DNA of 64,000 nucleotides. Origin: an uncultured Mollicutes bacterium. Lineage in GTDB: Bacteria; Bacillota_I; Bacilli_A; RFN20; CAG-826. The notes under the pieces are model-generated. The model saw nothing but the letters and a program-made list of their open reading frames with translations, was not told where the DNA came from and did not search any database. The stretch spans positions 1-64,000 of the forward strand of contig CAMESG010000006.1 of NCBI GenBank assembly GCA_945936135.1, read 5' to 3'. Position numbers and translations under genes: made by a program. Below, piece after piece: positions 11,181-32,271 of the stretch (positions are counted from its first letter, which is position 1; each line of letters opens with the position of its first letter).

Positions 11181-12470
11181 TCAACGTTCGGTGAAGGATT
11201 CGTCGAGCAAGAAATCCTGAATGCCAACGCACAGGATTCCGTTCTCGTCTTGACGTGGGATGATGTCTTCCTTGATCACCAGGATCTTTTTAAACGAATC
11301 ATTGATAAGCTTGAATCCTCGGGTCTCTTGAAGTTTCTTTTCGGCGTCTTGAATCGCGTAAGCCGATTGGATGTAATACTTTTCGTTCCCCTTTCGACAG
11401 ACGAAATCGATTTCGAGCCGTTTTCTTTGGCTCTTCTTCTCTTCGTCTTTGTAATTCCAATCCACCACTCCGACGTCCACGTCGAAGCCGCGATACCTCA
11501 ACTCGTTGTAGAGGACATTCTCCATGATATGGGTTTCTTCGAGCTCGCTGAAGTTCAAACGGGCATTCCTTAATCCGATATCCTCGAAATAGTATTTCAA
11601 TGGGCTTCCTATATACCGCTTTCCTCGAATGTCATACCTTTTGGCCGACTCGATCAAGAACGAGTCTATGAAATAGCCCAAATACTTCTCGATCGTGTTC
11701 GGATTCATCGAAAGCCGGCGAACCGATTGAAACGCATGAGAGAGTTTCAAAGGGTTCGTCAAGGAGCCGATGGACGAGGAAACGATATTGAGCAGGTCGT
11801 CCAAAACCCCTTTGTCGTTCCGCACGTCGTTTCGATCGATGATGTCTTTGAGATAGACTTCCGAAAACAGGTTCTTCAGATAATTTGACTTGTCTTCGTA
11901 AGATGCAAGCGAAAGAATGCGAGGCATCCCGCCATAAAGGATGTATTCCTGCCACGCCTTCGCTTTGTCGTCCGGGGCATCGTAAAACTCGCGGAACGAA
12001 AGTGGTCGAAGGTGGATTTGGTCGCCGCGGCCCCTGAATTTGGACAAAATGTCTTTCGAAAGCATTTCCGAATTGCTGCCGGTGACGTAAACGTCGACGT
12101 TCGGGATTTTTAGGAGGCCGAGCACAACGTCGGTGAACCCCACCTTGCTCCCTTTCAGATAGGGATTCTCCACTTCCTTGACGAGCTGGATCTCGTCGAT
12201 AAAGACGTAGTTGGTTTTTTGTCCGGGGATAAGTCTGCTTCGTAGGTATGAATCCAATTCGTTGGGGTTCCAGTAGCGTTGGTTGCTGATATCATCCAAA
12301 GAGATAGCAATGATGTGGCTTTCGTCCACACCGGAATTCAAAAGATGGTCTTTGAATAGGTTGAACAGCAGAAAGGTTTTCCCGCATCTCCTCAGACCGA
12401 CAATGACTTTGACCATGCCATTTTCCTTTTTGCGAATGAGCTGATTCAGGTACTTGTCTCGTCTGATCAT
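11181..12470 (-). CDS. AAA ATPase with DUF4143 domain (first of three)
   Basis: A 429-residue ATPase of the AAA_14/DUF4143 family. Walker A is VGLRRCGKTF (about residues 24-33), Walker B is YVFIDEIQ, and VTGSNSEMLS is the sensor-1 region. The DUF4143 half follows, ending in a nuclease-like stretch with EIDFVCRKGNEKYYIQ. The family is abundant in anaerobes and archaea; its role is not established. GGAGGAAAG precedes the ATG at 12470. A long palindrome lies immediately upstream. Paralogues sit at 17873 and 30916; all three are solitary genes, and their sequences differ enough to suggest separate acquisition. Confidence 0.85.
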   Translation of the reverse strand: MIRRDKYLNQLIRKKENGMVKVIVGLRRCGKTFLLFNLFKDHLLNSGVDESHIIAISLDDISNQRYWNPNELDSYLRSRLIPGQKTNYVFIDEIQLVKEVENPYLKGSKVGFTDVVLGLLKIPNVDVYVTGSNSEMLSKDILSKFRGRGDQIHLRPLSFREFYDAPDDKAKAWQEYILYGGMPRILSLASYEDKSNYLKNLFSEVYLKDIIDRNDVRNDKGVLDDLLNIVSSSIGSLTNPLKLSHAFQSVRRLSMNPNTIEKYLGYFIDSFLIESAKRYDIRGKRYIGSPLKYYFEDIGLRNARLNFSELEETHIMENVLYNELRYRGFDVDVGVVDWNYKDEEKKSQRKRLEIDFVCRKGNEKYYIQSAYAIQDAEKKLQETRGFKLINDSFKKILVIKEDIIPRQDENGILCVGIQDFLLDESFTER

Positions 12471-17872: not shown

Positions 17873-19150
17873 TCAAAGCAGCGTGCGGATTTTCCCCGCG
17901 AGATACAACGGGATCTTCGTGAAGTCGCCGTCTTTTCGATAGCCTCGAAGGGACAAACGCAAGGCGTGTTTTGGCTTATGCTCCGTTATATATCGTTTGA
18001 AGCTAGGCGCGGGCTTGCCCTCCCCGCCTTTGACTTCCAGGGGGATGATCTCCGTCCCGCTTTGCAAAAGGAAGTCGATCTCGCCGTTATTGTCCGCGTA
18101 ATATCTAGGTTCCACCTCGAATTGCCCCAACAACTGCTGCAAGACGAAGTTCTCCGTCAATGGGCCTTTAAATTGGTCGTCCATCGGAAGCAAGATCGCA
18201 TCGTTAGCGACACCCGCCATATGCTTTAGGAGGCCCGTATCGAAGAAATAGAGTTTGAATTGGCTCAACCGATCATAGGCCGACAAGGGATAGCCGATCT
18301 TGGATACGTTGTGGACGCGAACGACCAGTCCAGAAGAGACCAGCCACTCGATGGCTTCTTCGAATTCCCTGGCCCTAGCGCCTCCCTTCAATGCGCCGTA
18401 GACAAATTTCTCGTTGGGCTTGGAAAGTTGGGAGACAATGCTACGGAAAACAAGGAGAAGACGGCCCCGGTTGATTTTCCCGCCGTGTTTGGAAAGATCG
18501 TTCTCGTAAACCTCGATGAGCGCCTTTTGGATCTTTTCAACCTTTTTGGGATCCTTATCCTTGACCCAGGAAGCCACGGCTTCGGGCATACCCCAGATGA
18601 TCAGGTAATAACGGTATGCTTCCAATAGATAATGATGGAAGATATCTTCGATGGATTGTCCCTTTTCAATTCGTTCATAATACGAAAAGAGCTTCGGATC
18701 GACCGCTTCTAAAAACTCATCGAAAAAGAGAGGATGGATCGTCAAAAGATCGACCATCCCGACGGGATAGGATTTGGGCTCCGATAAAACCGTGCCAAGG
18801 AAGCTGCCCGCAACGATCACGTGGTATTCGTTGGCTTTTTCCCTGAAATACTTCAAAACATTCAAGGCCTCGGGGCATTCTTGGATCTCGTCAAAGATCA
18901 ATAAGGTGGTCCCTGGATTGATCTTCTCGCCGCAGACCAACGAAAGCGTAGTTAAGATGCGAAAGGGATCTTTGCTGATTTTGAACATGGATTTGAGCCC
19001 TTCCTCTTCGACAAAGTTGAAATAGGCATAATCCTCATAGTGGTTCCGGCCAAACTCTTTCAAAAGCCAGGTTTTCCCAACGCCATGCGGACCTTTCACG
19101 ATCAAAGGCTTGCGATCAGAACCGTTCTTCCATTCAATGAGTTCCTTCAT
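17873..19150 (-). CDS. AAA ATPase with DUF4143 domain (second of three)
   Basis: About 425 residues. Walker A is VKGPHGVGKTWLLKEF, Walker B TLLIFDEIQECPEAL, sensor VAGSFLGTVL; the C-terminal part has the DUF4143 segments GPLTENFVLQQLLG and EIDFLLQSGTEIIPLEVK, the last being nuclease-like (D-x(n)-ExK). I prefer the second ATG (19150) because AAAAGGA stands five bases before it; the first ATG at 19165 has no ribosome binding site. Function is unknown. Repeats resembling those before the third paralogue lie upstream (19203-19258). The gene is convergent with the M32 gene. Confidence 0.85.
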   Translation of the reverse strand: MKELIEWKNGSDRKPLIVKGPHGVGKTWLLKEFGRNHYEDYAYFNFVEEEGLKSMFKISKDPFRILTTLSLVCGEKINPGTTLLIFDEIQECPEALNVLKYFREKANEYHVIVAGSFLGTVLSEPKSYPVGMVDLLTIHPLFFDEFLEAVDPKLFSYYERIEKGQSIEDIFHHYLLEAYRYYLIIWGMPEAVASWVKDKDPKKVEKIQKALIEVYENDLSKHGGKINRGRLLLVFRSIVSQLSKPNEKFVYGALKGGARAREFEEAIEWLVSSGLVVRVHNVSKIGYPLSAYDRLSQFKLYFFDTGLLKHMAGVANDAILLPMDDQFKGPLTENFVLQQLLGQFEVEPRYYADNNGEIDFLLQSGTEIIPLEVKGGEGKPAPSFKRYITEHKPKHALRLSLRGYRKDGDFTKIPLYLAGKIRTLL

Positions 19151-19202
19151 CGCGTTCCTTTTCATAAAACATCGGTGCTTTCTGCATTATTCGCTTACTT
19201 CA

Positions 19203-19538: not shown

Positions 19539-20457
19539 CTACTCCTTCATAAAGGCTTTGATGGGATCCATGTTGCCACTTTCATAGTACTCAACCAAGA
19601 GTTTCTTGAAGGCAGGTACTTCTTTCTCCGGGACAACGATTAAACCTTCCCCTTTCGATATTAGATAATGATTCGAGAATGTCGTTGCTGCCCTCTTGTT
19701 GCCGTCATGGAAGATTTGGGTTCTCATACAGTAAAGGCAAAGCTCAATCGCCTTATCGATATCCACCCCTTCTTTTGAAACAATATCTTGGATGCTTTGT
19801 TTTACCTCAATCTCATTTGGGGTAGGAGGGCGATAAGAAGATCCTCCAATGGAAACGGGGACTCCACGGATCCTTCCTCCTTCTGCATAAAACGCTTCAT
19901 TCACGAGTCTGGCGATATAGCAAAGAATCGAGTAATCCGTTCCACGCTGGATCATGTCCTTTCGTAAGATGAATTCCCACGCTCGTCTTAGAGATTCAAG
20001 ATCTTGATAACGTCTTAGGAACGTAACCCATTAACAATGCCGTTATCCAAGACCTCTTCTATTTGAAAGAAGTCTCCTCGAATACCTTCAAAGACGGCTT
20101 GATCATAGAGGATGGACTTTAGATTGATGCTCGCGAAATCAAGGTTTCGTTGAACCCTAATTGAAAGTTCATCATCCCTATATCCAAGCAAGCCAAATTC
20201 TTTTTCAATACGCCGAATCGATGTTTTTAGTTCTTTCGCTTCTTTCGTTGATCGTAAAAGCGATTGATGATAAAGATCATCCGAATATTTATCGACATAG
20301 ATTGATTTCAATCGCCCGTGTTCGCGAGAACGGACATAGAGGTATTTTCCGCTTCGATTCTCTTTGATCTCAAGGGTTCCTTGATAAGGGATTTCAATCT
20401 TGCCTGGAGATCTTCCTTTGTCTGAAGCAGTTCTAGAATCTTCGTTGATTCATCCAT
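19539..20457 (-). pseudogene. Fic/DOC-family gene with two frameshifts
   Basis: Three frames rebuild one protein. The N-terminus MDESTKILELLQTKEDLQAR (ATG at 20457, AAAGGA upstream) shifts near 20400 into a frame with IPYQGTLEIKENRSGKYLY and GRLKSIYVDKYSDDL. That frame ends near 20015, where the last frame resumes with RRYQDLESLRRAWEFILRKD and then the Fic core: PVSIGGSSYRPP and QIFHDGNKRAATTF. The Fic active-site motif normally begins with His; here Gln occupies that place, which may be a subfamily trait. Fic enzymes AMPylate or otherwise modify proteins and often act as toxins. With two breaks the gene is probably dead. Confidence 0.72.
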
Positions 20458-20625
20458 TCTGCATCCTTTCTGTTTGGGGAAGATTTCTATAACAAATATA
20501 GGTCAATATTCCCTAAAATCGATGGCGTCCGGGAACGAAGATCCGCGGTAATCATTAAATAAGCGCCATTGAAGCCCGACAACAGCCCGAGACGAACAAT
20601 AGCTTTCCCATCAAGGAACCCCCCG

Positions 20626-20995: not shown

Positions 20996-21910
20996 ATGAA
21001 AAAATACCCGCTAGTCGTTGGGCTTGGGATGCTCGCGACCTGTGGAGCAGTTTTCGCGGCGTGGTCGTTCACTACGAGGGGAACCTCGTTTGAAACGCAA
21101 GAAAAGTCCGTCACGGTTACCATTGACGATGAAGTCACCCATGTTGGTAACCACGGTACTTTGACGCTTAAGAAGCCGACTGCCCCTGAACTCTATATCA
21201 CCCAAAACGTCGCGAGTGGCAATTCCGCGACCCTCAAGACCCGTTCCGGAACTGAACATGCTTATACCTACCACACCTATCTCGGGACATCGGAGGCCCA
21301 GAACGCAATCTTCGAACTCACCTACGCCCCTGCGGCGAAGGATGAGCCAGAAATCTACACCTTCAAGGTCAATTGGGAATTAAGCCTTTCTTCCTCGGTT
21401 ACCGATGTCACACTCGAAAATCCGACCGGAAGCTTGATCGTTTCTCAGAATTCTTTGAAAGCCAGCATTTCGTTGGATGAGATCCTTTCGACGGTCAAAT
21501 TCCCGACCACCCTCGATACCTATACCAAAGCACACGCTTGGGTTGATGCGATCCCTGAGAATTTAAAGATCAACATCACCTTTAAGAGCGCGGAACTCGT
21601 CCGCACCATGACGAAGAACGGCTACGGATACTCCGTCAACAATGGCGATATCATGCCAATGGTTGCTAACGACGGAAATAGGAATGAGGTCATGGCGCAA
21701 GGCTTGGCCCTCAAGGCGGGAGATATGATCCAGATCCACGAAAAGAAGGCCGATGGATTCTATAGCTATCCCCTCACCCCAAAAGAAGGAACGGGCAACT
21801 TAGTTACACTCGAAGAAGGGTCAACGTACAACAAAGTTACACAAAACGTTGAAAACTACGGGCTTTACGTTGATATCGTCAGCGAAACCAAAACCATCTG
21901 GTTGTCGTAA
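20996..21910 (+). CDS. TasA/CalY-like secreted fibre subunit with SipW-type signal peptide (long form)
   Basis: 304 residues. MKKYPLVVGLGMLATCGAVFA followed by AW is a signal peptide of the SipW-dependent type (TasA, CalY/camelysin), with cleavage expected after GAVFA. The mature part is rich in Thr, Ser and Val with alternating polarity, as in TasA-like beta proteins. About residues 60-195 resemble the second subunit; the last hundred residues are an extra domain. GGAAGGAGG precedes the ATG. The second subunit follows after 14 bases, then the SipW peptidase. In Bacillus, TasA forms biofilm fibres; the role here is inferred from that. Confidence 0.75.
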   Translation: MKKYPLVVGLGMLATCGAVFAAWSFTTRGTSFETQEKSVTVTIDDEVTHVGNHGTLTLKKPTAPELYITQNVASGNSATLKTRSGTEHAYTYHTYLGTSEAQNAIFELTYAPAAKDEPEIYTFKVNWELSLSSSVTDVTLENPTGSLIVSQNSLKASISLDEILSTVKFPTTLDTYTKAHAWVDAIPENLKINITFKSAELVRTMTKNGYGYSVNNGDIMPMVANDGNRNEVMAQGLALKAGDMIQIHEKKADGFYSYPLTPKEGTGNLVTLEEGSTYNKVTQNVENYGLYVDIVSETKTIWLS

Positions 21911-21924
21911 AGGAGGAACGAACA

Positions 21925-22485
21925 ATGAAAAAATATCCATTCATCGCGGGCCTCGGTTTGCTCGCAACCTGTGGAGCCGTCTTCGCGGCTTGGAGTTTCG
22001 GTTACACGCCGACAAACGAGATTGACGATTCCCTCCCCATCAACATCGGTGTTGATACCGATTGGGATGCCATCGGAATGCACGGCACCCTCGCTTTGGA
22101 AAGCCCGGCAGCGTTCACGACCGTCCAAATCGTCCAAAACGATGCCAAGAATTCTGCGAAATTCAATTACACCGGCAGCGATGTTTATACCTTGAAATAC
22201 ACCGCCCCGACCGATGGGAACCCCGATCCAGAAACGTTCAACTTCACCGTCAACGCCACGGTGACCTCGAATTTGTCTGTCGTTTCGGAAATCACCGTCA
22301 GCAGCGCGGTTTCCACTCTCACCATCAGCAACGCTTCGGCTACCGCAAGCGTTTCCGTTAGCGATCTTCTCGGCAAGATCACCTTCGGGACCATCGACAC
22401 CGAAGCGAAGGCCGATGCTTTCGTCGCCGCCGTCAAAAAGGTCAAAAATCCGACCATCACCTTCACCTTCGCCGCTGCCGCCTAA
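21925..22485 (+). CDS. TasA/CalY-like secreted fibre subunit with SipW-type signal peptide (short form)
   Basis: 186 residues, with signal peptide MKKYPFIAGLGLLATCGAVFA then AW, almost the same as that of the upstream gene. The mature chain is a compact Thr/Ala/Val-rich beta protein containing ALESPAAF, YTLKYTAPTDGNPDPETFNF and a C-terminal stretch ending FTFAAAA. A strong AAAGGAGG lies eight bases before the ATG, better than for its neighbours, so this may be the most highly made product. A 12-bp hairpin follows the stop. It is probably the main filament subunit, by analogy with TasA/CalY. Confidence 0.75.
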   Translation: MKKYPFIAGLGLLATCGAVFAAWSFGYTPTNEIDDSLPINIGVDTDWDAIGMHGTLALESPAAFTTVQIVQNDAKNSAKFNYTGSDVYTLKYTAPTDGNPDPETFNFTVNATVTSNLSVVSEITVSSAVSTLTISNASATASVSVSDLLGKITFGTIDTEAKADAFVAAVKKVKNPTITFTFAAAA

Positions 22486-22501
22486 TTCTTTTTTACCCCA
22501 T

Positions 22502-22530
22502 GGCCACGCTTAGCTCGTCTAGGCGTGGCC
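22502..22530 (+). terminator. Intergenic hairpin between fibre subunit and sipW
   Basis: GGCCACGCTTAG and CTAGGCGTGGCC form a 12-bp stem with one G-T pair and a CTCGT loop. Only a weak T-rich stretch follows (TATTCCCATTTT). It could be a partial terminator or an RNA-stabilising end that makes subunit mRNA exceed peptidase mRNA. Confidence 0.55.
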
Positions 22531-22547
22531 TATTCCCATTTTCTACC

Positions 22548-23399
22548 ATGACCGGAATCGAACTCTTTTCCACCATACTTCTCGTCTTCGTCTGCATTTT
22601 CGTCGCTCTTGCGATCGGCTATTTGGTCTATTTGCTTTTCAAGACAAAAACGCGGTTGATCGCCGGCGGCCTAGACGATGCGAAGTGCAAGAAACATTAC
22701 GATGAGGATCACGCGAAGAGCGCCACTTTTTATAAAGTCGCCGGTGTTTTTGTAAACACATTAATCGGCGTCCTGTTCACCGGTCTATTCGCTTATTCGG
22801 TCTACGTGAACGTCATCGCTTTCGATGAACCCATTTCCTTGGCTTCGCCGAAAGTCGTTATGTCCGGCTCCATGTCCGAGAAGCATAAAGACGCGACCTA
22901 TTTGGTCAAGAACAACCTGAACGACCAATTTCAGGTCTACGATATCGTAATCCTTGAGAAATTGCCCGATGAATTCGAGCTCAAGCAGTACGATATCGTG
23001 GTTTATACGATCGAAGACACCCAAGTCATCCACCGCATCATCAACATCGAAGAGCCTACAGCAGAACACCCAGGTCACCGTTGGTTCCAACTTCGCGGGG
23101 ACGCGAATCCCAGGGCCGATAGCAAGCCCGTGATCTATAGCCAGATGAAAGGCATCTATCGCGGCAATCGAATCCAATACGTAGGCTTATTCGTCGCCTT
23201 CTTTCAATCCGCGTTAGGATATTTGACCTTCGCGATCATCCTCACCTACTTGTTCATCAGCCCCTTCGCGGAACGCAAATACGAGATCGTGATCTATACC
23301 CGTCTCGCGGAGATCGGCTACATCGAGCAAGAAGAATTGGAAGCCTTGAAGTATCACACGAAATACAAGAAGAAAGGCCAAGATGAAAAGAGGCCTTAA
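22548..23399 (+). CDS. sipW: SipW-type (ER/archaeal-like) signal peptidase I
   Basis: About 283 residues. An N-terminal membrane helix (MTGIELFSTILLVFVCIFV) is followed by a second one near residue 70. VVMSGSMSEKH contains the catalytic Ser, QVIHRIINI the His that replaces Lys in SipW-type enzymes, and LRGDANPRADSKPV the later conserved Asp box. A C-terminal hydrophobic segment (about 220-250) ends in a charged tail. It should cleave the GAVFA-type signal peptides of its three neighbours. No ribosome binding site is visible before this ATG or the one at 22500. Its 3' end overlaps the next gene by 17 bases. Confidence 0.85.
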   Translation: MTGIELFSTILLVFVCIFVALAIGYLVYLLFKTKTRLIAGGLDDAKCKKHYDEDHAKSATFYKVAGVFVNTLIGVLFTGLFAYSVYVNVIAFDEPISLASPKVVMSGSMSEKHKDATYLVKNNLNDQFQVYDIVILEKLPDEFELKQYDIVVYTIEDTQVIHRIINIEEPTAEHPGHRWFQLRGDANPRADSKPVIYSQMKGIYRGNRIQYVGLFVAFFQSALGYLTFAIILTYLFISPFAERKYEIVIYTRLAEIGYIEQEELEALKYHTKYKKKGQDEKRP

Positions 23400-24213
23400 G
23401 GTATTCGCCAGTTTGCCCATCTTGGGCTTCGCCCTCTCTTTGGGGGCGGTTTTCGCTTCTTGGCAATATGCTTCGGGCGATGGACCTTCTTTCGATGAGC
23501 GCCAAGAAACCGCGAACGTCGGGATCGACGATGTCTGGGCCTTTCCGAAGAACATCGTCGCGAGCGTGCACTCCCACGACACGAACACAACTGCGGAAGT
23601 CGCGCTTCAAGAGGTCGACGTCCCCGATGAAGGCTATATCCAGCAATGGGAAGCAGATATCGTCACGACAGATTCGGATCACGCGGACATCATGTTCACC
23701 TTAGATGGGGCGGATTTCGTCTACCGATACGACGACGATACCAAGTGGCACGTCGCGGACGACGGGCGTTTTAACGAAACGAATTTGGACAATAAGCAAA
23801 CCTACTATTCCTTCCGTGCCTTTTACGGGGCGACCTACCACTTTAAAGTACGTTACGACGGCGCTTCTTATTCCGTGTCTTGCTCGGACGACAACCCGAC
23901 GAACTACTCGGTCTTGATTTTAAACGTCAACAGCAAATATCCCCACGTTTATCTTTGGAAAGATCAAACAGAAATCAAAAACGACAAATGGCCTGGCATC
24001 ACCCTTTCTTCGCCTTGGGTGTCCAGCCAAAGCAACAAACCTCTTTATTATTTGATATTCCCCAAAGGAACTTACGACCGCTTAATTATCAACAACAAGA
24101 ACGCGGGCAGCGATGCCGGCGAGCAGACTCCCGACATCGTGATCAACTCGGGAGCCCCCTTTGCCTATCAAAGGTTTTGGCTGGATAGCACCACAAGCTT
24201 CGGGTGGTATTGA
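23383..24213 (+). CDS. SipW-type secreted protein with CBM26-like starch-binding module
   Basis: 276 residues. The signal MKRGLKVFASLPILGFALSL then GAVFA and SW matches the SipW type. An N-terminal domain (residues 30-165) has segments QQWEADIVTT and YYSFRAFYGATYHF. The C-terminal domain (about 175-276) shows the CBM26 pattern: VYLWKD, WPGITL, YYLIFPKGTYDRLIINN and GEQTPDIV. CBM26 modules bind starch granules. The start lies inside the end of sipW, so translation is coupled. The protein could be a starch-binding tip or side subunit of the fibre; binding is inferred from the motif, not shown. Confidence 0.65.
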   Translation: MKRGLKVFASLPILGFALSLGAVFASWQYASGDGPSFDERQETANVGIDDVWAFPKNIVASVHSHDTNTTAEVALQEVDVPDEGYIQQWEADIVTTDSDHADIMFTLDGADFVYRYDDDTKWHVADDGRFNETNLDNKQTYYSFRAFYGATYHFKVRYDGASYSVSCSDDNPTNYSVLILNVNSKYPHVYLWKDQTEIKNDKWPGITLSSPWVSSQSNKPLYYLIFPKGTYDRLIINNKNAGSDAGEQTPDIVINSGAPFAYQRFWLDSTTSFGWY

Positions 24214-24270: not shown

Positions 24271-25668
24271 TTACTTGCCAGCCGAACGATGACCTTTCTT
24301 CAGGTGTTTTCCCACTTCTTTTTCGTTGCCTTCGCCGATGATTTCTTGAATGCGTCTTTGGCCATTCAAGATGAAATCGCAAATATACGCCCGATCAACG
24401 GGAATCGGGATTTCATCCAAACAGATCTCGATCATCTCAGGGGTCGCTTTCTTCCATTTCATTTCGCGATACATCTTTCGCGAATCCGGACATTCTTCGA
24501 GGAATTCCGCGAAAAAGCGGATCAACCCATCGTTTTTACGGCTTCGATCTTTTGGATAGCCGCGCGAAATCAAGGCGATGTTGTTATCGAAATTCGGCGC
24601 GAGAGCAAGGATGTTTCCGCTTTCGACATCCCGAAGAACTCCGAAATTTTCCGTGTGGCGATCCATGTTGAAGCAAAGCGTGTCCATGTAAATCAGGCGC
24701 AGGTATTCTTTTGCGAGCAAAGGAGATAGACCGAACAGGGTTTCAAAGCATCGTTGATAGTCGTCATCTTCACCCGTAAGACCTTTCATCGGCTCGAAAT
24801 TGACGCTGGCCCCGTCCGTGAAATCTTTGGAAATCAAACAATCCCCGTTCAAATCGTAATGCGCCATAGGAAAGCCGAGCGCCTCCCCGAGGCGACAGAT
24901 GAAGAGCTCGGAGAACAACTCTTCCGGATTCCCTCTTTTTACTAACCACCAAAAGCCATCCTTTCTTTTCCAACATTTCTCGAAACTTCCGATATTCGTC
25001 AATTCAGGAGTTGGGGCGGGCCGCAAGGCGAAGGCATTGGAATCCCCGCGGAGGGCAAGCTCGTCAAACGCGTTGCTTGAAAACCGGATGTCTCGATAGG
25101 TTTTGCCGGATCCCACCGGCCGAAACCAATATCGATCCGTGATGGTCGCGGCATAGACAGCGATCGCGGAAGAGAAATCGTCCGTCTTTTTAAGGCGAAG
25201 GACGCGTTTCAACAAGCGGGAATTCGTTCGGTGCCGGTCGATTGCCCGAGACGCGATCCATTCTTCGACATCTCGGGTTCTTTTGACGAAAAAAGGAAGC
25301 AGACTCTCTTTGGCATCAACGATCTGCCCCTTATCGACCCTGGCGATCTCGATATCTCCCGACATCAACCATCCCGTAAGTTCTCGGAGGTTGCGATCCG
25401 CTTTCTTTTCGTTTCGGGCAAGGGACTTCGCTTCCGGGGTCGCCTTCCATTCCTTTAGCTTTTCTTGAAGCGCCAATCGATGGTTCAGGATCTCTCTCGC
25501 TTTCGGAAGATCCCCTTCTTTGATGTATCGGCTTCTCAAACGTCCGTTTTCAAGCCATTGCCAATAATAACGGTCTTTCCCTTGAATCTTCTTCCGCGAA
25601 ATATAGCCGTTCGGGCATTCGGAAAGCTCTTTCTTCAATCTCGTGATTTCTTCGTCCGCATTGTCCAT
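24271..25668 (-). CDS. HipA-like kinase with N-terminal module shared with the Fic gene
   Basis: About 465 residues. The N-terminal 70 residues (CPNGYISRKKIQGKDRYYWQ, then GRLRSRYIKEGDL) resemble the N-terminus of the broken Fic protein at 19539-20457. A linker follows. The C-terminal half (about 215-440) has HipA-like kinase motifs: NMDRHTENFGVL for the catalytic Asp and LAPNFDNNIAL for the metal-binding Asp. HipA kinases phosphorylate translation factors and are usually paired with a HipB repressor; no HipB gene is beside it. The second ATG (25668) is preferred because AAAGGGG is well spaced from it. An inverted repeat lies over its promoter. Confidence 0.65.
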   Translation of the reverse strand: MDNADEEITRLKKELSECPNGYISRKKIQGKDRYYWQWLENGRLRSRYIKEGDLPKAREILNHRLALQEKLKEWKATPEAKSLARNEKKADRNLRELTGWLMSGDIEIARVDKGQIVDAKESLLPFFVKRTRDVEEWIASRAIDRHRTNSRLLKRVLRLKKTDDFSSAIAVYAATITDRYWFRPVGSGKTYRDIRFSSNAFDELALRGDSNAFALRPAPTPELTNIGSFEKCWKRKDGFWWLVKRGNPEELFSELFICRLGEALGFPMAHYDLNGDCLISKDFTDGASVNFEPMKGLTGEDDDYQRCFETLFGLSPLLAKEYLRLIYMDTLCFNMDRHTENFGVLRDVESGNILALAPNFDNNIALISRGYPKDRSRKNDGLIRFFAEFLEECPDSRKMYREMKWKKATPEMIEICLDEIPIPVDRAYICDFILNGQRRIQEIIGEGNEKEVGKHLKKGHRSAGK

Positions 25669-25695
25669 GGTCATCCCCTTTGAAACTCTACCTTC

Positions 25696-25729
25696 ATTAT
25701 AACCTATATTTTATTTGCAAGAATAGGTT
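25696..25729 (-). promoter_or_regulatory. Promoter and inverted-repeat operator of the HipA-like gene
   Basis: On the minus strand TATAAT occupies 25701-25696. AACCTAT (25701-25707) and ATAGGTT (25723-25729) form a perfect 7-base inverted repeat with 15 bases between, placed over the promoter spacer and -35 region. This is a typical repressor layout. Confidence 0.5.
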
Positions 25730-25734
25730 ATACG

Positions 25735-30915: not shown

Positions 30916-32271
30916 ATGGAAAGAAAGTATTTAGCAAATCTTCTGGAATGGAATTCCGATGAGGATCGAAAGCCTCTTTTGGTTCTCGGCGCCAGACAAG
31001 TTGGGAAAAGTTATTTGATTGAAGAACTTTTCGCTAAGGAATATTACAAAAATCGCTATCTAAGAATCGATTGTTCGGATGATACGGATTTCGTGAATTT
31101 TGCTATGCGAAACGATTCGCTAGATAAAGTTCTCGATTACATTCAAATTCATTACGACTTCATCCCCGACGCGAACCATCTCTTGATTTTCGACGAAGCG
31201 CAAGAATGCCTTCCCATCATTAAAATGATGAAACATTTTTGCGAAAGAAAAAGGGACATACCCTTGATTGTCTCCGGATCCCTCGTCCGCATCAAAATCC
31301 ATCGCCACACCCACAAAAGAGGAGGATTAGCCGATAAAGGTTTCCTTTTCCCCGTTGGGAAAATCAATCAGCTCATCGTTTACCCGCTCACGTTTGATGA
31401 ATTTTTGCTCAATTACAAAAAACCGACGTATGATTTTTTGTTGGAACATTATCAAAACAAAAAAAGTATTCCTACCGATTTGCATCAAGAACTTCTCCGT
31501 ATCTTCAATAACTACCTGTTCGTCGGAGGTATGCCGGAATCGGTCCAAACTTTCCTCAGGCACAAAGAAAACCCAACGATTGCTTACGAAAAAACGTCAG
31601 CAAGGATAAAAGAAATCTATTCCAACTACTTAAGCGACATGGAGCTCTATCAAGTCTCCGCCGAGTCCATCATGAAGAGTCGTTTGATTTTTCGAAACAT
31701 TTTTTCGCAGCTCAACAAAGAAAACAAGAATTTTAAATATTCCGAAATCAACGAAAAATACCGGAGCAGGGACGTTGCTACGCCTATCGAATGGTTGCAG
31801 ACGGCAAACATAGTCAACAAAGCCCACCTCGTAAAAGAACACGTGACCAGCCCCCTTATCGAAGACGAGGATTCTCTTTTCCGCTTGTACCTGTCCGATG
31901 TGGGTCTGTTTACCTATCAAAGCGGCCTGAACGCTAAGACATTCGCGTCCAGCAAAGACAACGCTCTATCTGGAATCTATTATGAGAACTTCGTTGCCTG
32001 CGAGCTGGCCGCAAGAGGAATCGAATTGTTCTACTGGAAGGGAAAACGAGACAGTGAACTGGAATTCCTTTTGAACGTTGATGGCGAAATCCTCCCCATC
32101 GACGTCAAGAAAACGAAAGGATCTTTGAAATCGATGCAGGAATTCCGGTCCCACAACAAGCGCAGCACCATCATAAAAGTATCCGCCAATCAATACGGAT
32201 ACAATGAAGAACACGACATATTGACGATCCCATATTATTTCTTTTCCTTTTTCCTAAACGAACGCTTTTAA
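30916..32271 (+). CDS. AAA ATPase with DUF4143 domain (third of three)
   Basis: 451 residues. Walker A VLGARQVGKSYL, Walker B LLIFDEAQECLP, sensor VSGSLVRIKI, then the DUF4143 part with GIYYENFVACELAARG and the nuclease-like DSELEFLLNVDGEILPIDVK. It is a fuller version of the paralogue at 17873 and more distant from that at 11181. AAAGGTAAG precedes the start at some distance. The upstream 34-bp repeats suggest regulation by a multimeric protein or origin from a mobile element. Function is unknown. Confidence 0.85.
   Translation: MERKYLANLLEWNSDEDRKPLLVLGARQVGKSYLIEELFAKEYYKNRYLRIDCSDDTDFVNFAMRNDSLDKVLDYIQIHYDFIPDANHLLIFDEAQECLPIIKMMKHFCERKRDIPLIVSGSLVRIKIHRHTHKRGGLADKGFLFPVGKINQLIVYPLTFDEFLLNYKKPTYDFLLEHYQNKKSIPTDLHQELLRIFNNYLFVGGMPESVQTFLRHKENPTIAYEKTSARIKEIYSNYLSDMELYQVSAESIMKSRLIFRNIFSQLNKENKNFKYSEINEKYRSRDVATPIEWLQTANIVNKAHLVKEHVTSPLIEDEDSLFRLYLSDVGLFTYQSGLNAKTFASSKDNALSGIYYENFVACELAARGIELFYWKGKRDSELEFLLNVDGEILPIDVKKTKGSLKSMQEFRSHNKRSTIIKVSANQYGYNEEHDILTIPYYFFSFFLNERF

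What the first reader, a model, noticed from the sequence alone, without database searches (positions are those of the whole stretch)
24271..25668. The same N-terminal module on a HipA-like kinase and on a Fic protein
HipA-like: CPNGYISRKKIQGKDRYYW then GRLRSRYIKEGDL. Fic: IPYQGTLEIKENRSGKYLY then GRLKSIYVDKYSDDL. Both start with a helix of about 20 residues and continue with another helix. A common adaptor on two unrelated protein-modifying enzymes, both families with toxin members, suggests a shared docking partner.
Basis: partly seen in the sequence, partly recalled or inferred. Interest (0 to 1): 0.6.

Follow-up and report, generated by a model that had tools for sequence, protein, structure and literature searches.

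The report
Shared DNA-binding domain on toxin-like enzymes
A kinase and a broken Fic enzyme in this bacterium share a small domain that, judging by matching DNA motifs in front of its genes in many genomes, probably grips DNA and switches off its own gene, and that evolution has attached to many different toxin-like enzymes.

Summary
The shared module is real. The HipA-like kinase (24271-25674) and a Fic gene (19539-20457, broken by frameshifts) carry homologous N-termini: profile comparison P 1.4e-10, score 59 against at most 29 in 100 shuffles. Both are predicted helix-three strands-helix. They are the only two copies found in the genome. No curated family covers the module; Pfam's DUF6788 matches remotely, below cut-off. 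Elsewhere it is fused to, or encoded directly before, NTP_transf_8 nucleotidyltransferases, DUF3990, AAA_14 ATPases, small P-loop kinases and AdhE. I find no sign of a shared protein docking partner. Instead, module genes carry operator-like inverted repeats at their promoters (Fic 24/34, hold-out 20/27; HipA-like 10/19; controls 29/311); the window's is TATAACCTAT-N15-ATAGGTTATA. HipA-like and stand-alone genes share the half-site AGGTTA, and in Fic one strand residue (Lys or Arg) predicts the half-site (24/24 parsed hold-outs). Most likely the module is a DNA-binding autorepressor fused in cis, in the place that HTH domains hold on sister kinases. DNA binding and toxicity are untested. New variant of a known kind.

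The parts
24271..25674 (-). HipA-like kinase gene, 467 aa, carrying the module at its N-terminus
   Evidence: ORF; Pfam HipA_C PF07804 30.8 bits, cut-off 30.5; kinase-type motif residues (DRH, N, D) invariant in 12 of 12 aligned homologues
25435..25674 (-). The module: residues 1-80, helix 3-19, strands 24-30, 33-42, 45-51, helix 53-78
   Evidence: AlphaFold2, pLDDT 87.4, 37 sequences; A7 profile E 2.9e-25
24565..24960 (-). HipA_C kinase region (residues 239-370)
   Evidence: Pfam
25698..25732 (.). Operator-like inverted repeat TATAACCTAT-N15-ATAGGTTATA ending 23 bp before the start codon of the HipA-like gene
   Evidence: score reached by 1 of 300 shuffles; AACCTA-N14-20-TAGGTT occurs at one place in the 1.23-Mb genome, the reversed control pattern at two matches per strand; same half-site at 25-26 bp in 8 of 8 HipA-like genes that have both halves
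19539..20457 (-). Fic gene, broken by at least two frame changes and a stop
   Evidence: three-frame reading; intact relatives of about 305-345 aa
20195..20392 (-). Sheet and second helix of the module in the broken Fic gene
   Evidence: A7 profile E 6.8e-11
19539..19955 (-). Fic core ORF, motif TQIFHDGNKR with Gln in place of the catalytic His
   Evidence: Pfam Fic PF02661 31.6 bits, cut-off 24; sequence
20472..20518 (.). Degenerate operator-like repeat before the Fic gene, TTTTAGGGAA-N27-TTCCCCAAAC
   Evidence: relative L034 has TTTTAGGGAA-N27-TTCCCTAAAA

Best explanation
The module is a small helix-beta3-helix, sequence-specific DNA-binding domain (remote relative of Pfam DUF6788) that works as an autorepressor. 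As an inferred dimer it binds an inverted repeat at the promoter of its own gene and limits transcription. In the window it is fused in cis to a HipA-like kinase, and was fused to a now broken Fic protein, so each was a one-gene system with effector enzyme and repressor in one chain. In other genomes the same module is a separate gene directly before a toxin-like enzyme, the place of an antitoxin. Shown here by computation: homology, predicted fold, the partner list, enrichment of operator-like repeats, and concordance between strand residues and half-site. Inferred: DNA binding itself, dimerisation, repression, and any neutralisation of the enzyme. Which strand residues touch bases is a guess.
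For: Inverted repeats (score 8 or more within 80 bp upstream) precede 24/34 Fic-fused, 10/19 HipA-like, 5/5 NTase-fused, 3/4 NTase-split, 4/5 AAA_14-fused and 3/3 Fic-next genes, against 29/311 other genes in the same loci. Fic genes not used before: 20/27. AGGTTA lies upstream of 11/14 Bacilli-type HipA-like and 19/26 stand-alone (AAA_33-next) genes against 13/311 controls; GGTTAA in 6/6 Clostridia-type upstream sequences against 7/311 (the six include L092, whose kinase is cut by the contig end). Half-site spacing is 25 or 26 bp in 8/8 HipA-like genes with both halves, and a half-site falls between the best-scoring -35 and -10 boxes in 11 of the 14 Bacilli-type genes scored (my count of its rows; hexamers taken as half-sites: AGGTTA, TAACCT, AGTTAA, TTAACT). 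In Fic modules Lys in strand 1 goes with TAGGG/TTGGGG sites (22/22) and Arg with TGTGAAAC (9/9); 3 of 34 had neither. Hold-out: 7/7 and 17/17, 24 of 28 parsed. HipA-like genes without GGTTA have TTAACAA/TTGTTAA sites and a changed strand 1 (4/4), the other 17 have GGTTA. A sister kinase with an HTH (L125) has an unrelated repeat, score 19; one with no N-terminal domain (L126) scores 5; three Fic genes without module score 5, 5, 6. The module takes the place of HTH domains in L124 and L125 and of a separate HicB-type gene in L127. The sheet region is basic in all ten groups.
Against: No binding experiment. Related genomes are counted, so P values are inflated, and the Lys/Arg rule follows two clades of whole proteins, so it cannot by itself place specificity in the module. 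No clear inverted repeat before stand-alone genes next to AAA_33 (3/26; there a single AGGTTA lies downstream of the predicted -10), P-loop kinases (1/6), DUF3990 (1/4) or lone modules (5/23). The HTH-fused sister L124 scores only 4. Fusion to AdhE and a gene 3 bp before a predicted TypA-like GTPase do not look like toxin systems. No significant PDB or viral fold match.
Confidence: 0.78

Rival explanations
1. Promiscuous antitoxin: the module's main task is to bind and neutralise the enzyme beside it, as reported for the Panacea domain, and any DNA binding is secondary.
For: Separate module genes overlap or abut NTase (4 loci), DUF3990 (4), Fic (2 split pairs and one canonical Fic) genes; a hyperpromiscuous antitoxin domain is precedent (PMC10440598, passages).
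Against: The partners share no domain that Pfam sees, so one binding surface would have to suit all; AdhE and a TypA-like neighbour are not toxins; the operator data need a DNA-binding part in any case.
Confidence: 0.3
2. Shared protein docking partner: the module brings different enzymes to one common cellular protein.
For: One fold on many enzymes, including non-toxin AdhE.
Against: No partner found; operators track the module; HTH and HicB-type components replace it.
Confidence: 0.07
3. RNA-level autoregulation: the module binds its own mRNA leader.
For: In stand-alone genes next to AAA_33 a single AGGTTA lies downstream of the predicted -10, close to the ribosome site.
Against: In most HipA-like genes the upstream half-site lies upstream of the predicted -35, so it would not be transcribed from that promoter.
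Confidence: 0.1
4. The repeats belong to other regulators, or are common in AT-rich promoters, and are unrelated to the module.
For: AT-rich genomes; controls reach the same score in 29/311.
Against: Enrichment over controls and dinucleotide shuffles, shared half-sites across different enzyme classes, fixed spacing, hold-out concordance.
Confidence: 0.08

Closest known systems
HipH (YjjJ) kinases, Hip clade X (PMC8262856, abstract and passages read)
   Same: HipA-homologous kinase from a single gene with an N-terminal DNA-binding extension of about 100 aa, proposed there as possible cis-acting antitoxin
   Different: That extension is a helix-turn-helix; here it is a helix-beta3-helix module that also occurs on other enzymes
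HipBA autoregulated operon (PMC8262856, passages)
   Same: Palindromic operator in the promoter; the kinase domain passes the Pfam HipA_C cut-off
   Different: No separate HipB seen; the DNA-binding part is fused and of another fold
Panacea, hyperpromiscuous antitoxin domain (PMC10440598, passages)
   Same: One small domain paired with structurally unrelated toxin domains
   Different: No sequence link was tested; here operator-like sites point to DNA binding, and neutralisation is untested
Pfam PF20586 DUF6788
   Same: 10 of 18 module sequences match it, best E 1.8e-4; the window match covers profile positions 51-95 of 103
   Different: Window module 15.9 bits against a cut-off of 27.2; the family model finds 0 of 198 class genomes at E<=0.01
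Arm-type binding domains of integrases (3jtz, 3rmp) and AP2 domains (6sy0)
   Same: DNA-binding three-stranded sheet packed on a helix (recalled); among the top Foldseek rows for the Fic module
   Different: Matches are not significant (best E 0.22)

Membership tests
HipA-like kinases (HipA_C) | Passes the Pfam HipA_C cut-off | tested here: met
   30.8 bits against 30.5, barely; CtkA and HipT chains in PDB found by profile A3
HipA-like kinases (HipA_C) | Catalytic and metal-binding motif residues kept (DRH..N, D; roles recalled) | tested here: met
   Invariant in 12 of 12 aligned homologues
HipA-like kinases (HipA_C) | Separate HipB-type HTH antitoxin gene adjacent | tested here: inconclusive
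   No obvious one in the ORF list; small ORFs were not scanned for HTH
HipH/YjjJ type kinase | N-terminal helix-turn-helix | tested here: not met
   Predicted helix-beta3-helix
Fic/Doc | Fic domain over the Pfam cut-off | tested here: met
   31.6 bits against 24 for the ORF at 19539-19955
Fic/Doc | Catalytic His of the HxFx(D/E)GN motif (recalled) | tested here: not met
   Gln in the window and in 40 of 40 distinct Fic proteins of this type in which the motif was read (6 further ORFs gave no motif)
Fic/Doc | Intact reading frame in the window | tested here: not met
   a sequencing or assembly error is not excluded
Pfam DUF6788 | Score over the curated cut-off | tested here: not met
   15.9 bits against 27.2; remote similarity only
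Arm-type/AP2-like DNA-binding fold | Significant structural match | tested here: inconclusive
   Foldseek E 0.22 or worse for these entries
Promiscuous antitoxin | Paired with several unrelated enzyme families | tested here: met
Promiscuous antitoxin | Neutralises the partner enzyme | not testable with these tools
   needs a toxicity assay

The most novel reading that the evidence does not exclude
An undescribed, mobile DNA-addressing domain with a readable protein-to-operator code, attached by evolution to at least seven enzyme types (HipA-like kinase, Fic, NTP_transf_8, DUF3990, AAA_14, P-loop kinase, AdhE), making one-gene toxin circuits in which the enzyme is held at its own promoter and released or relieved by an unknown trigger such as phage attack.
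Probability: 0.3. Interest if true: 0.82.

Novelty: new variant of a known kind. Interest (0 to 1): 0.66.

Why it matters
It gives a testable function, sequence-specific autoregulatory DNA binding, to a domain that no searched family library names, and it links HipA-like, Fic, nucleotidyltransferase and DUF3990 systems through one shared part. A tie between one strand residue and the operator half-site makes protein-DNA recognition in this fold directly testable. It also suggests that cis-fused repressor-effector genes, known with HTH domains (HipH), have arisen with a second kind of domain.

Tried and rejected
Shared protein docking partner: no evidence found. Named libraries: NCBIfam and PHROGs give only single-member weak hits for the 47-row alignment; Pfam gives only DUF6788 below cut-off in more than two members; the S-layer chains found by sequence align over 37 residues of hairpin and were set aside. 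Fold searches: PDB and viral Foldseek gave nothing at E<=0.001; VIA-align listed prefoldin-like hairpins (best Z 4.9 for the HipA module) and, for the Fic module, 4nsm at Z 8.7 (69 aligned, rmsd 3.0), then prefoldin at Z 7; I treat these as a common arrangement. A DUF6788 search of 198 genomes found none. An IR test on stand-alone (AAA_33-next) genes was negative. No paper in the library names DUF6788; DUF3990/DUF3791 papers (listing only) do not link them to this module as far as titles and abstract starts show. Dropped rows: L033 (N-masked), L036 (identical to L035) and L058 (broken) left out of A6; L225 and L226 gave no start codon in the hold-out; 4 of 28 Fic hold-outs did not parse.

Full report
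Observation. ORF 24271-25674 (-) encodes a 467-aa HipA-like kinase (Pfam HipA_C 30.8 bits, cut-off 30.5). Homologous Fic proteins in other genomes of the order are intact and mostly 305-345 aa. The source is a metagenome-type assembly as far as relatives show (same-genus G017 contig equals a 'Bacilli bacterium' MAG contig by length), so an assembly error is possible. The genome, 1.23 Mb, holds exactly two matches to the final module profile at E up to 10, these two, about 5 kb apart.

Homology. Thirteen HipA-type and 28 Fic-type N-termini were aligned apart. hhalign gives probability 96.9 and P 1.4e-10 over 71 columns; reversed, shuffled (100) and unrelated alignments stay far below. Each group's HMM finds the other (24/28 and 10/13 at E<0.05), with 0 of 28 reversed decoys. 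A profile without Fic rows found a Fic protein in a search of 392 genomes at E 2.7e-4. AlphaFold2 gives H3-19 E24-30 E33-42 E45-51 H53-78 for the window module (pLDDT 87.4) and H3-23 E29-35 E38-47 E50-58 H61-90 plus a further helix for a Fic module (pLDDT 85.4).

Distribution and partners. Matches: 72 of 146 family genomes with the HipA module, 54 of 147 order genomes with the Fic module, 62 of 395 class genomes with the joint profile. Scanning every fetched locus with small HMMs built here, and Pfam for examples, the module is fused to HipA-like kinases, to Fic, to NTP_transf_8 nucleotidyltransferases (Nitrospirota/Nitrospinota MAGs, E 1e-18 to 5e-22), to AAA_14 ATPases and, in two genomes of one genus, to AdhE. 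As a separate gene it overlaps or abuts NTP_transf_8 (L086, L087, L198, L204), DUF3990 (L073, L075, L076, L080; Pfam E 2e-48 for one), Fic (L158, L210), a canonical Fic with HPFREGN (L149) and small P-loop kinases; in many Bacilli it sits between pyruvate:ferredoxin oxidoreductase and an AAA_33 kinase followed by uvrA (the names of the first and last are recalled from sequence). So the same pair occurs both fused and split for Fic and for NTP_transf_8. PADLOC lists the HipA-like, Fic and AAA_14 parts as phage-defence candidates (PDC-M03A, PDC-S04, PDC-S01).

What stands in its place. Plasmid-borne kinases matched by a module kinase carry, at the same end, an Xre-type HTH (L124), an excisionase-type HTH (L125), a separate upstream HicB-family antitoxin gene overlapping by 4 bp (L127) or nothing (L126) (HTH types by sequence reading and record annotation). 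Plasmid Fic relatives start after the module.

Operators. Upstream of the window HipA-like gene is a perfect 10-bp inverted repeat with a 15-bp spacer (25698-25732). Best inverted repeats within 80 bp upstream reach score 8 in 24/34 Fic-fused, 10/19 HipA-like, 5/5 NTase-fused, 3/4 NTase-split, 4/5 AAA_14, 3/3 Fic-next, but only 3/26 AAA_33-next, 1/6 P-loop-next, 1/4 DUF3990-next, 5/23 lone, 1/2 AdhE and 0/1 canonical-Fic-next genes; controls 29/311. Hold-out Fic genes fetched afterwards: 20/27. AGGTTA is enriched both before HipA-like (11/14) and stand-alone (19/26) genes against 13/311; Clostridia-type sequences have GGTTAA (6/6 against 7/311), NTase fusions TAGTTA (5/5 against 12/311), Fic GGGAAC (14/34 against 3/311). 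In eight HipA-like genes with both half-sites the spacing is 25 or 26 bp, and in most the downstream half-site lies between the predicted -35 and -10. The pattern AACCTA-N14-20-TAGGTT occurs at one place in the whole genome, against two matches per strand for the reversed control pattern, so the pattern itself is not rarer than chance; its place is what is notable.

Residue and site. In 34 Fic genes, Lys in strand 1 goes with TAGGG/TTGGGG sites (22) and Arg with TGTGAAAC (9), 3 having neither; one of those (L045, Arg) has the intermediate site TGTGGAACA. In 24 parsed of 28 hold-outs the rule held without exception (7 Lys, 17 Arg). Four HipA-like genes with TTAACAA/TTGTTAA and no GGTTA have strand 1 changed from GY[IL]x to G[FN]VY. 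These follow clades, so they support but do not prove contact.

Reading. The simplest account is a DNA-binding autorepressor domain, cis-fused to effectors in the window. The enzymes are toxin-like by family only; toxicity, DNA binding, dimerisation and neutralisation are untested. The Fic enzymes of this type have Gln for the catalytic His (40 of 40 with a readable motif), so their activity is doubtful. Literature: HipH/YjjJ (PMC8262856, passages), HipBA operators (same), Panacea (PMC10440598, passages); Makarova 2009 (PMC2701414, passages) gives the general partner-swapping background. A search for the domain name found no paper.

Noticed in passing
19539-19955 and 40 relatives: Fic proteins of this type have Gln for the catalytic His of the Fic motif (QxFxDGNKR) in 40 of 40 distinct sequences with a readable motif; relatives are widespread, also on Enterococcus, Lactobacillus and Campylobacter plasmids (the motif was read only in three of those records).
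   Followed up: partly
L133 and L134 (G043, G064): The module is fused to the N-terminus of a bifunctional AdhE-type aldehyde/alcohol dehydrogenase.
   Followed up: partly
L156, L157: A 173-174-aa module protein is encoded 3 bp before a TypA-like GTPase (name recalled from sequence).
   Followed up: no
L110, L111: In Nitrospirota MAGs the module-nucleotidyltransferase gene follows a gene that looks like a 2-oxoacid:ferredoxin oxidoreductase subunit, and in L110 precedes another (names recalled).
   Followed up: no
20996-24213: Between the two module genes lie three short secreted-type proteins and a signal-peptidase-like gene, reminiscent of a SipW/TasA-type set (by eye).
   Followed up: no
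11181-12470, 17873-19165, 30916-32271: Three ATPases that look like AAA_14/DUF4143 proteins lie around the module genes (by eye).
   Followed up: no
L132 (G043:C97): A 1434-aa HipA-like protein with the module and a long Glu/Pro/Val-rich tail with two further repeated domains.
   Followed up: no
L147 (G464): A second broken Fic gene of this type, split by a frame change, in another genome.
   Followed up: no
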